Shown: positions 20,876 to 38,538 of the stretch, in pieces
Numbering within the stretch: position 1 is the first letter of the stretch
Layout: each line of letters begins with the position of its first letter
DNA from: Bacteroidales bacterium
GTDB lineage: Bacteria > Bacteroidota > Bacteroidia > Bacteroidales > UBA932
Direction: 5' to 3'
Assembly (NCBI GenBank): GCA_017399865.1
Contig: JAFQAT010000009.1
Location: 1-49,024 of the forward strand
Length of the DNA stretch: 49,024 nucleotides
Program-made: the position numbers and the translations under genes
The notes under the pieces: model-generated
What the model saw: only the letters and a program-made list of their open reading frames with translations
Told to the model about the DNA's origin: nothing
The model's database searches: none

Positions 20876-20955
20876 AAACAATATCCCCGGGATGTGGACG
20901 AGCGAAGCATATACCTATGCTCCTGCGAAGCGAACCACTCCAGGGGATATTGTTT
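20876..20955. repeat. Palindromic element with conserved GCGAAGCAT...CCTGCGAAGC loop
   Basis: AAACAATATCCCC (20876-20888) pairs perfectly with GGGGATATTGTTT (20943-20955). The stem continues imperfectly inward (GATGTGG with CCACTCC). The enclosed core 20898-20934 begins GAGCGAAGCAT and ends CCTGCGAAGCGAA. This core is nearly identical to the repeated core inside the methyltransferase gene at 37220-37510, although the stems are unrelated. It ends 20 bases before the nrdD stop. Confidence 0.8.
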
Positions 20956-36355: not shown

Positions 36356-37006
36356 ATGATTCAGGCAAAAGGAATAGAAAAGTCGTTCGGCACGCTGAAA
36401 GTGCTCAAGGGAATCGATTTCAACGCTTCAAAAGCAGAAGTCGTGTCTATAATGGGTGCTTCTGGAGCAGGAAAGTCCACCCTTCTTCAGATTCTTGGCA
36501 CATTGTCGACACCTGACGCCGGGTCTTTGGTCATAGATGGCGTAGAAGTTTCCCGTTTGAAAGGCGACGCGCTGGCCGAATTCCGCAACCGCAAGCTCGG
36601 TTTCGTCTTCCAGTTCCATCATCTCCTTCCTGAGTTCACGGCTCTTGAGAATGTCATGATTCCAGCATTCATAGCCGGACGTTCCCGAAAGGACGCTTCG
36701 GAAGCTGCTTCTGCGCTGCTGGCGGATCTCGGTCTGGCAGAACGCATGGGTCATAAGCCTACGGAACTGTCCGGTGGCGAGCAGCAGAGGGTCGCGATAG
36801 CCCGTGCCCTGATCAACAGACCTGCGGTCCTCTTTGCCGATGAACCTTCCGGAAACCTTGATTCCAAGACCAAGGAAGAACTCCACCGTCTTTTCTTTGA
36901 CCTCAGGGACAAGTACGGGCAGACCATTGTAATCGTAACTCACGATCCCGACCTTGCCGCCATGTGCGACAGGTCTCTCTATATGGTAGACGGACAGTTT
37001 GTATAA
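36356..37006 (+). CDS. lolD: LolD-like ABC transporter ATP-binding protein
   Basis: A 216-residue ATPase of the MacB/LolD group, most likely powering release of lipoproteins from the inner membrane. Walker A is GASGAGKST (34-42), followed by the LolD-type [19 protein letters not shown], the signature [15 protein letters not shown], Walker [13 protein letters not shown] and the switch His in VTHDPDL. No permease gene is adjacent; LolC/E must be elsewhere. The start at 36356 follows from the promoter at 36331-36338. Confidence 0.88.
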
Positions 37007-37018
37007 TCGTCTGAGCCA

Positions 37019-38068
37019 ATGGGAGTTTTTCGTTTCAAGAAGTTCGAAGTGGTGAATGAGCGCAGCGCCATGAAGGTAAACACCGACGGTGTCCTTCTCG
37101 GCGCCGCGATGACTATAAAGCAGGCAGACAGGTATCTGCTGGATATCGGCACCGGCACCGGCACCATCGCCCTTATGGCTGCCCAGCGTCTGTCGCAGGC
37201 CTGCATCGGTCATTCGGACAAGCGAAGCATCTCCCTACGTTCCAGCGAAGCGGTCCGAATGACCGATGCAGGCCCCGGAGATTGCCCGACAGAAGGTCCG
37301 GATGCCCGTCGGATCGGGCGAAGCATCTCCCCATGTTCCTGCGACGAAGGTCTGACCGGCCGTCAGATCGGGCGAAGCATCTCCCCATGTTCCTGCGACG
37401 AAGGTCTGACCGGCCGTCAGATCGAGCGAAGCATTTCCCTATGTTCCTGCGACGAAGGTCCGGATGCCCGTCGGATCGGGCGAAGCATTTCCCCTATTCT
37501 CTGCGAAGCCGAGCCGACGGGCATCCGGACCCTCTGCCTGCATGCAATAGATATAGACGAAGCATCGGCGACGGAAGCCGAAGCAAACTTCCGCAACTCG
37601 CCATGGCACGACCATCTCCATGCATTCAACATGTCTCTCGACGAATTCGCCCGCAACGGGGGCGGAACGGAATATGATCTGATTTTTTCGAATCCGCCGT
37701 ATTTCGAAGACTCCTTCAATGCTCCCGAAGAGCGCAGGAACAACGCCCGCCACACTTCGACCGGACTCTCATACCGCGAGATCCTCGATTTTGCTTCGGA
37801 ACATCTTTCCGATGAAGGAAGAGTATCCCTTGTGCTTCCCGCAGAAACCGAGCACGCCCTCTGCCGTCATGCGCGGATGTACGGACTTCATCTGTTCAGA
37901 ATCCTCCGCATAAGGACTGTGCCGAGAAAAGCCCCTTCCCGGATAATCGCCGAATTCTCGAGAAAACGCACGGAAACCCCTGAAGACAGGATCCTTACAA
38001 TACAGAATGAGGGAAAGTATACCGAAGAGTACCTTTCCCTCATGCGAGATTTCTATCTTTTCGCTTAA
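37019..38068 (+). CDS. trmN6: TrmN6-type tRNA (adenine-N6) methyltransferase with large in-frame repeat insertion
   Basis: A 349-residue SAM-dependent methyltransferase related to YfiC/TrmN6, which makes m6A37 in tRNA1(Val). The usual length is about 235-245, so about 110 residues are extra. Motif I LLDIGTGTGTIAL (40-52) and the catalytic motif SNPPYFE (224-230) are intact, as is HAIDIDEAS (175-183) that should follow motif I closely. Between them, residues about 61-173 consist of repeats (GRSISPCSCDEG, period 18) encoded by palindromic DNA at 37198-37531. The frame is kept on both sides. The insertion sits in a surface loop between helix A and strand 2, so the enzyme may still work. It follows lolD by 12 bases and ends in a 4-base overlap with a convergent gene. 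Confidence 0.85.
   Translation: MGVFRFKKFEVVNERSAMKVNTDGVLLGAAMTIKQADRYLLDIGTGTGTIALMAAQRLSQACIGHSDKRSISLRSSEAVRMTDAGPGDCPTEGPDARRIGRSISPCSCDEGLTGRQIGRSISPCSCDEGLTGRQIERSISLCSCDEGPDARRIGRSISPILCEAEPTGIRTLCLHAIDIDEASATEAEANFRNSPWHDHLHAFNMSLDEFARNGGGTEYDLIFSNPPYFEDSFNAPEERRNNARHTSTGLSYREILDFASEHLSDEGRVSLVLPAETEHALCRHARMYGLHLFRILRIRTVPRKAPSRIIAEFSRKRTETPEDRILTIQNEGKYTEEYLSLMRDFYLFA
37198..37274. repeat. Palindromic element inside the methyltransferase gene, 22-bp perfect stem
   Basis: 37198-37219 is the perfect reverse complement of 37253-37274 (22 of 22). The 33-base loop is AAGCGAAGCAT...CCAGCGAAGCG, with GCGAAGC at both ends (37222-37228, 37245-37251). It is the same loop family as the intergenic element at 20876-20955. 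It is translated in the methyltransferase frame. Confidence 0.88.
37295..37531. repeat. 54-bp-period tandem array of the palindromic element inside the methyltransferase gene
   Basis: Four copies of the core start at 37316, 37370, 37424 and 37478, spaced exactly 54 bases. Each begins G(G/A)GCGAAGCAT. The first three continue to CCTGCGACGAAGG and the fourth diverges at its end. The spacer GTCTGACCGGCCGTCAGA is itself palindromic. The outer 18 bases (37295-37312) are the perfect reverse complement of 37514-37531 and also recur at 37457-37474, so the last unit forms its own hairpin (37457-37531). The 54-bp period keeps the frame (18 residues). Confidence 0.88.
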
Positions 38069-38538
38069 TTCTGCTGCGGTCTGGGACCGTGATGCAGATT
38101 CCTGATGTGCTGCCTTCTGAACTTCTCTTCCGCAACAAAGATCTTCGCTACCTTTTTGTCCGGAAGTATCTTCTTGTACTTTTCTACAGAGTCGCTGCGG
38201 ATCTCATCCTGGCTCTCCAGCGCGTCCAGATATCTTTCCAGACATTTGCTGATCTCCTTGTCCGACTTGTCCTCTTCAATGGCTTTTTCCAGCTCCATAT
38301 AGGAGACGAAGGTGCTGCGCATCGCTCTGTCAAGCTGGTCGCTTACTGAATTATAAATCGGCCAGAAACTCTGCGCCTCCGCAGGAGTAAGGCCTATTTC
38401 ATTTGTAAGGAATGCGATCTTGATGCTCTGCATCTTTTCTTTCCAATCCTCTCCCGGCTTTGGCTGGGCGTAAGCATGTCCTGCATACAAGGCCATGACG
38501 AGAATCAATGCGACTGTTGAAAATAATCTATGTTTCAT
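38065..38538 (-). CDS. Exported helical protein, third gene of the second sigma locus (Spy/CpxP-like position)
   Basis: A 157-residue protein with a signal peptide (to about 24, GHAYAQ). The mature part is almost wholly alpha-helical and charged, with LTPAEAQSFWPIYNSVSDQLDR, a motif typical of small periplasmic stress or metal-sensing proteins (Spy-like) in Bacteroidota. It ends with a His/Gln-rich tail (HGPRPQQN). It is the last gene after an ECF sigma and an anti-sigma-like gene. A chaperone or sensor role is inference from context. Confidence 0.7.
   Translation of the reverse strand: MKHRLFSTVALILVMALYAGHAYAQPKPGEDWKEKMQSIKIAFLTNEIGLTPAEAQSFWPIYNSVSDQLDRAMRSTFVSYMELEKAIEEDKSDKEISKCLERYLDALESQDEIRSDSVEKYKKILPDKKVAKIFVAEEKFRRQHIRNLHHGPRPQQN

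What the first reader, a model, noticed from the sequence alone, without database searches (positions are those of the whole stretch)
37198..37531. Palindromic repeats inserted in frame in a tRNA methyltransferase gene, adding about 110 residues
Seen: the TrmN6-type gene keeps all its motifs, but between motif I (residues 42-48) and the strand HAIDID (175-180) lie about 110 residues encoded by a 22-bp perfect palindrome and a 54-bp-period array, all in frame. Known: Rickettsia palindromic elements are small palindromes that invade coding sequences in frame and are translated. Inference: this Bacteroidales genome hosts an analogous element family that tolerates translation, and the insertion sits in a surface loop, so the enzyme may survive. 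I know of no description of this in Bacteroidota.
Basis: partly seen in the sequence, partly recalled or inferred. Interest (0 to 1): 0.9.

Follow-up and report, generated by a model that had tools for sequence, protein, structure and literature searches.

The report
Repeat landing pad inside a gene
In a gut bacterium the gene for a tRNA-modifying enzyme carries two hairpin-forming DNA repeats that would be translated as about 108 extra amino acids, and related species carry other kinds of repeat at the same spot, so certain loops of working enzymes seem to be recurrent landing sites for small repeats.

Summary
trmN (37019-38068) carries two in-frame hairpin elements: E1 with perfect 22-bp arms, E2 with a 54-bp tandem array. 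The loop is about 108 residues longer than in the nearest species without an insert. The insert is neither unique to this genome nor recent: G033 has E1 and E2, G075 has E1, at dS near 1.4, while the enzyme core is under purifying selection (dN/dS about 0.1). Across the three E1 copies 11 of 22 stem pairs changed on both sides.

The elements belong to a family (F1 here) with a conserved loop and locus-specific stems: 18 loci in this genome, 5 in frame inside genes. Between species the loop is inverted in 7 of 15 shared loci, three of them with identical arms. Matched arm change plus loop inversion is what replication template switching predicts.

The TrmN loop is a hotspot: 13 of 95 distinct orthologues carry a recognisable repeat there, from four families, all in one 28-row clade. 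dpp4 shows a second shared site.

In-frame palindromic repeats are known (Rickettsia RPEs, REPs). New here: the F1 family, one site used by several families, loop flips. No expression or enzyme data; the structure model was unusable.

The parts
37019..38068 (+). trmN, tRNA1(Val) adenine-37 N6-methyltransferase, with in-frame insert
37198..37219 (+). E1 left arm, 22 nt, perfectly complementary to the right arm
37220..37252 (+). E1 loop with the conserved core GCGAAGCATCTCCC and a second GCGAAGC
37253..37274 (+). E1 right arm
37290..37317 (+). E2 outer left arm (28 nt, 93% complementary to 37509-37536)
37293..37508 (+). E2 array: four copies of left arm plus loop at 54-bp spacing (copies start at 37293, 37347, 37401, 37455)
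37457..37531 (+). E2 hairpin of the last copy: arm 37457-37479, loop 37480-37508, arm 37509-37531
37509..37536 (+). E2 outer right arm
20882..20949 (+). another F1 copy, intergenic between two convergent ORFs in this window

Best explanation
The segment is two copies of a small palindromic repeat (family F1) that entered a tolerant loop of TrmN in an ancestor of at least three species. Shown: same place and open frame in three species, core enzyme under purifying selection, matched stem changes, later four-copy expansion seen only in this genome, other repeat families at the same place in other species. Inferred: the copies arrived as non-autonomous repeats of the REP/RPE kind; the loop between the helix after motif I and the next strand tolerates added residues, so insertions that keep the frame survive and the spot collects unrelated repeats. 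Inferred: the arms stay complementary while their sequence drifts, and loops flip between species, because replication switches template within the hairpin, copying one arm onto the other and at times inverting the loop. In intergenic copies the stem probably ends transcription of one or both neighbouring genes; in trmN the hairpin is probably a passenger.
For: Core dN/dS 0.094 and 0.101 against G033 and G075. E1 in three species with 11 of 22 pairs changed on both sides, 2 on one side. 32 F1 elements: 18 of 18 outer pairs with two-sided changes, 200 two-sided cells against 53.6 in shuffles. G-T pairs only 3.5% of paired cells in the outer stem. Loop inverted in 7 of 15 shared locus groups, three with identical arms. 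Tandem copies 1 and 2 differ at six sites, all within 13 nt of the arm. 13 of 95 distinct TrmN carry a repeat of four families in this loop; 7 of 19,000 shuffled loops do. The same repeats are dispersed in those genomes, with 0 hits for the reversed patterns. Five genes of this genome hold in-frame F1 copies.
Against: No expression, proteome or enzyme data. The AlphaFold model from the single sequence is meaningless (pLDDT 32). L124 (G073) has a short loop yet falls among the three F1 rows, with weak support for its exact place, so loss or two gains must be assumed. Template switching was not observed directly: matched change could also come from selection, E2 taken alone is not significant (29 of 500 shuffles), and 18 of 143 pairs compared between G000 and G033 were not Watson-Crick in at least one species. 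Flip calls rest on gene order; the L262 group may mix two neighbouring copies. dS of 1.39 is near saturation. What moves F1 is unknown.
Confidence: 0.7

Rival explanations
1. The hairpins are kept by selection because they act locally, for example on mRNA stability or transcription through trmN, or by binding a factor through the conserved loop; matched stem changes are then ordinary compensatory evolution.
For: Stems stay paired at dS near 1.4; loop core nearly invariant in 32 elements; intergenic copies sit within 80 bp of a stop codon in 12 of 13 cases in this genome, which fits a terminator role.
Against: Loops are inverted in 7 of 15 shared locus groups, which selection for a strand-specific signal would oppose; most TrmN orthologues have no hairpin there; few G-T intermediates (3.5% of paired cells), although a two-way terminator would also avoid them.
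Confidence: 0.2
2. The conserved loop of about 35 nt is itself the mobile unit and enters the tips of ready-made, locus-specific hairpins such as terminators; flips are then two insertion directions.
For: Constant loop, locus-specific stems, both directions seen.
Against: Downstream of metK 6 of 22 genomes have F1 and none of the other 16 shows the same stem without the loop; E1 in trmN sits in no terminator.
Confidence: 0.1
3. trmN is a pseudogene that collects junk.
For: A 108-residue insert and a score below the family cut-off.
Against: Core dN/dS about 0.1 and open frames; motifs kept; no second trmN found in this 78%-complete genome.
Confidence: 0.03
4. The number of 54-bp copies is an assembly artefact.
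For: G033 has E2 in a single copy; no reads were available.
Against: The four copies are not identical (6 to 9 differences from copy 1) and the frame is kept; other species show tandem growth of other repeats at the same place (L132, L135, L160).
Confidence: 0.1

Closest known systems
Rickettsia palindromic elements (RPEs)
   Same: Palindromic repeats present in many copies and translated in frame in unrelated genes (PMC10969869 and PMC3733652, passages).
   Different: RPEs are described there as about 150 bp with a conserved peptide; F1 has a conserved loop and locus-specific stems, and one TrmN site is used by several families. Sequence kinship to RPEs was not tested.
REPs of the CGTC superfamily
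   Same: F2, F3 and F5, the repeats at this site in other species, carry a GTCAT end and short stems and lie mostly dispersed in the genome; CGTC REPs are reported in Bacteroidetes and intragenic REPs in several species (PMC3733652).
   Different: F1 has arms of 13-25 bp and loops of 29-39 nt in most copies seen, against stems of 8-9 bp and loops of 4-5 nt in that paper, and no constant end tag.
Coding palindromes of Nematomorpha mitochondria
   Same: Perfect inverted repeats inside translated, functional genes (PMC6649704, abstract).
   Different: There both arms encode conserved protein regions; here the arms encode residues that relatives lack.
Template-switch mutation at inverted repeats
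   Same: Arm homogenisation and spacer inversion in yeast coding DNA (PMC8604942, abstract); creation and upkeep of RNA stems (PMC8794818, abstract).
   Different: Those are mutation processes; here they would act on a dispersed bacterial repeat family between species.

Membership tests
Rickettsia palindromic elements | palindromic repeat lying in frame inside conserved genes | tested here: met
   trmN, dpp4, ABC-F, ArsP_2, dnaX in this genome (dnaX named from sequence by recall)
Rickettsia palindromic elements | sequence kinship to a described RPE family | not tested
   no RPE sequence was compared
Rickettsia palindromic elements | host in Rickettsiales | tested here: not met
   35 of 35 stretches with the loop pattern are in records titled Bacteroidales
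CGTC REPs | F1: stem of 8-9 bp, loop of 4-5 nt, constant CGTC-type end | tested here: not met
   arms up to 22-25 bp, loops 29-39 nt, ends locus-specific
CGTC REPs | F2/F3/F5: GTCAT end, short stem, many dispersed copies | tested here: met
   sequences; F3 100 copies in G211; F2 in 14 of 15 genomes; F5 copies elsewhere were not counted
REPs mobilised by a Y1 (RAYT) transposase | cognate transposase gene flanked by the repeat | tested here: inconclusive
   one PF01797 gene in G000, 25.1 bits against a cut-off of 23, no F1 core found beside it
MITEs | constant terminal inverted repeats and target duplication | tested here: not met
   stems differ from locus to locus; target duplication not tested beyond one 8-bp repeat
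Known RNA family | match at Rfam gathering score | tested here: not met
   8 matches at E<=1 in 36900-38200, all microRNA hairpins far below gathering score
TrmN methyltransferase | match to NF047853 and class I motifs | tested here: met
   E 5e-55 in two stretches, motifs aligned; score below the curated cut-off of 350

The most novel reading that the evidence does not exclude
F1 is a new class of bacterial hairpin repeat whose conserved loop is recognised as folded single-stranded DNA (two GCGNAGC mini-hairpins), while the stem is rewritten and the loop inverted again and again by template switching at the replication fork; a few protein loops (TrmN, DPP4) are true recurrent landing pads for several repeat families, so repeat insertion is a steady source of new protein sequence in this genus.
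Probability: 0.25. Interest if true: 0.88.

Novelty: new variant of a known kind. Interest (0 to 1): 0.7.

Why it matters
One enzyme loop is taken by unrelated small repeats across species while the enzyme stays under selection, which makes the old question of whether translated palindromes supply new protein sequence testable with natural replicates. The F1 loci, with matched stem changes and inverted loops between species, would be a natural record of template switching in bacteria.

Tried and rejected
Rejected: pseudogene; an insert private to this genome; a known RNA family; F1 as a CGTC REP (stem and loop size). Considered, not supported: the loop as a mobile unit entering ready-made hairpins. 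Whether one arm was copied from the target at insertion could not be tested for lack of a clean empty site.

Led nowhere: a mobiliser beside F1. Structure: six submissions met a busy machine (57, 61, 71, 79, 81, 85); the job accepted finished with mean pLDDT 32 and pTM 0.21, so it says nothing and no fold search was run. The literature search for GCGNAGC or mini-hairpin listed nothing on repeats; the GNA mini-hairpin motif is recalled.

Counts to read with care. TrmN was found in 90 of 200 genomes of the genus; fetched 80 stretches; of 100 loci parsed (this gene plus 99 fetched) L206 gave no ORF, leaving 99, of which 95 were distinct and 4 duplicates were dropped. Some genomes occur under two handles (G033 and G074 gave identical matches). 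Intragenic shares (F3 11 of 30, F2 7 of 30) count any ATG-started ORF of 200 aa or more and include spurious frames, ORF ends and trmN itself. One search had two pattern hits outside the loop: L200, a further in-frame F3 near the C-terminus, and L181, an antisense near-match. One search's bootstrap had not settled; F5 is not clustered on the tree (500 of 500 shuffles as low). Six of the eight genomes (all but G007 and G001) had given sequences to the model. One search misaligned the mraZ-side pair, recounted; its 'one-sided' column is zero by construction. One search used a wrong E2 border and was redone. In one search I listed 22 of 25 matched stretches; three whose match stops short of the gene end were left out. 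One search stopped with an error and was redone; one search stopped and was redone. Alignment A2 held a wrong stretch of L131 and was replaced by A3.

Full report
OBSERVATION. The window's trmN (37019-38068, 349 aa) has the TrmN motifs, split by an insert. The insert holds an inverted repeat with perfect 22-nt arms (37198-37274, E1) and a second inverted repeat (37290-37536, E2) in which left arm plus loop is repeated four times at 54 bp. The segment folds far better than shuffles (z -8.7). Both elements share a loop core; allowing one mismatch it occurs 7 times in the window against 0.19 expected. PDB chain 7wm6 aligns with query residues 9-65 (a weak stretch of 1.1 bits) and 177-344 and leaves the insert unmatched, between the stretch after motif I and the next conserved stretch. 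By the usual order of the class I methyltransferase fold (recalled) that is the turn between the first helix and the second strand.

A FAMILY WITH CONSTANT LOOP AND CHANGING STEM. In the genome the loop core with up to 2 mismatches has 63 hits against 22 for the reversed pattern. Of the 28 loci outside and inside trmN inspected first, many sit in hairpins with nearly the same loop but unrelated stems, others show no hairpin (more). On 32 aligned elements all 18 outer pairs show changes on both sides; over the 25 pairs given 91.5% of cells pair and 200 cells are two-sided against 53.6 in shuffles; sliding the partner by one to three columns drops pairing to 34-44%. A covariance model finds 23 matches in G000 at E<=0.1, 22 of them at E<=0.001, which I group into 18 loci; 34 in G033, 13 in G073, 19 in G075, 13 in G077, 9 in G080, 2 in G007 (E 3.6e-4 and 0.024) and none in G001. 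All of these but G007 and G001 had given sequences to the model. An exact loop pattern scanned in the 84,980 species genomes hit 35 stretches, all in records titled Bacteroidales, 31 of them naming a ruminant gut sample. I call this family F1. The loop carries GCGRAGC and GCGNAGC, with N the free position; such heptamers are recalled as unusually stable DNA mini-hairpins, which no call here tested.

WHERE F1 SITS. In G000, 13 of 18 loci are intergenic by ORF tables (no gene caller was run); 9 of the 13 lie between convergent ORFs, 4 between ORFs on one strand, none between divergent ones, and in 12 of 13 a stop codon of a flanking ORF lies within 80 bp. Many stems begin with A and end with T runs, as two-way terminators would. 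Five loci are in frame inside genes: trmN, dpp4, an ABC-F gene, an ArsP_2 gene (Pfam) and dnaX (named by recall). In dpp4 and the ABC-F gene the PDB alignment shows extra residues around the element: 43 against 3 and 87 against 52. In dnaX the element runs against the gene and the frame is still open. Per element 3.75 of 6 frames are open against 2.62 in shuffles, 0 of 200 as high.

THE INSERT IS OLD. G033 has E1 and a single-copy E2 at the same place in trmN, and G075 has E1. Core dS to each is 1.39, near saturation, and dN/dS 0.094 and 0.101. Across the three E1 copies 11 of 22 stem pairs changed on both sides, 2 on one side, 3 have an unpaired copy, 6 never vary, and 95% of cells pair. E2 has two sequences and 4 two-sided pairs, which 29 of 500 shuffles equal. 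L124 (G073), with a short loop, falls among the three F1 rows, so a loss or a second gain is needed.

A HOTSPOT. I parsed 99 trmN genes, 95 distinct, from the genus and from genomes behind named loci. The loop runs from 7 to 118 residues. Thirteen of 95 carry a recognisable repeat in it: F1 3, F2 (GATTCCCGGTCAAGCCGGGAATGAC type) 4, F3 (GTCATTCTGAGCGAAGTGAAGAATC type, either strand) 4, F5 2; shuffled loops gave 7 of 19,000. L132, L135 and L160 show tandem growth of their own repeat, like the 54-bp array here. All 13 lie in one supported clade of 28 rows with 9 long loops without a recognised repeat and 6 short ones; the tree needs 10 gains or losses of the four labels, 7 forced by supported branches. 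F3 and F2 are scattered through the genomes examined: F3 100 copies in G211, 80 in G083, 22 in G000 and none in 3 of 15; F2 in 14 of 15; 0 for the reversed patterns. F5 was not counted elsewhere. dpp4 shows a second shared site: one loop carries F1 in G000 and G033 and two F3 copies in G211, and another loop carries F2 in G211 and a repeat-like stretch in G033. Among the other F2/F3 copies looked at, repeat-coded residues lie in frames that look like UvrA, LigA (near the C-terminus), MetG, ClpB, RsmE and TsaB (names recalled, no family search run).

ARM CORRECTION AND LOOP FLIPS. Grouping F1 loci by flanking ORFs gave 15 locus groups in two or more genomes; in 7 the loop is inverted relative to the genes between species. 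In three the arms are identical: L257/L277 (17 nt, loop identical), L285/L354 downstream of metK (21 nt), L111/L115 (15 nt, loop identical, context judged from one ORF). In two more they are clearly related: L264/L230 (16 of 18 nt) and L261/L270 (17 of 20 pairs). The L262 group may mix two neighbouring copies. Over seven G000/G033 pairs, 101 stem pairs were unchanged, 24 changed on both sides and 18 were not Watson-Crick in at least one species (with the recount). Tandem copies 1 and 2 in trmN differ at six sites, all within 13 nt of the arm, and by eye copy 2 gains a local 6-bp hairpin there. Homogenised arms and inverted spacers are the outcome described for template switching in yeast (PMC8604942, abstract), and template switching has been proposed to maintain RNA stems (PMC8794818, abstract). 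In trmN a flipped E1 loop would bring an in-frame stop, a flipped E2 loop would not; both keep one orientation in the species seen.

MECHANISM, WITH STEPS MARKED. Shown: place, frame, age, purifying selection on the core, matched stem change, flips at intergenic loci, reuse of the site by other families. Inferred: entry as non-autonomous repeats; survival because the loop tolerates residues; template switching as cause of matched change and flips; terminator role of intergenic copies; passenger role in trmN. Unknown: what moves F1. One Y1 transposase-like gene exists in G000 without F1 beside it. The single-sequence structure model was unusable.

KNOWN OR NEW. In-frame palindromic repeats are known from Rickettsia and, for CGTC and GTAG REPs, from other bacteria; CGTC REPs are reported in Bacteroidetes (PMC3733652, passages and section 6; PMC10969869, passages). 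The listings of my searches showed no paper on this F1 family, on one protein position used by several repeat families across species, or on loop flips in a bacterial repeat family; that library lacks most subscription papers. I rate it a new variant of a known kind.

Noticed in passing
window 20882-20949: Another F1 copy between two convergent ORFs that look like nrdG and nrdD (names recalled); its loop is inverted relative to the genes in L123.
   Followed up: partly
window 37199-37206 and 37536-37543: An 8-bp direct repeat GCCTGCAT flanks the insert; the copies are 337 bp apart, which is not a multiple of three, so it is not a simple in-frame target duplication.
   Followed up: no
L204, L205, L198, L197, L201 (trmN orthologues): A second length-variable loop of TrmN, before the NPPY motif, is long in some species without a recognised repeat.
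   Followed up: no
L224 (G000:C17:14980-15186): A 300-aa Y1 transposase-like ORF, a possible mobiliser of one of the repeat families; no F1 core beside it.
   Followed up: partly
L351, L364, L360, L353, L369, L374 downstream of metK: Terminator-like hairpins with a shared stem (GTGCGTGCTCCC type) in six species where others have F1.
   Followed up: no
L357 and L361 downstream of metK: A different long hairpin (28-nt arms, 44-nt loop) with nearly the same loop in two species, perhaps another repeat family of the constant-loop kind.
   Followed up: no
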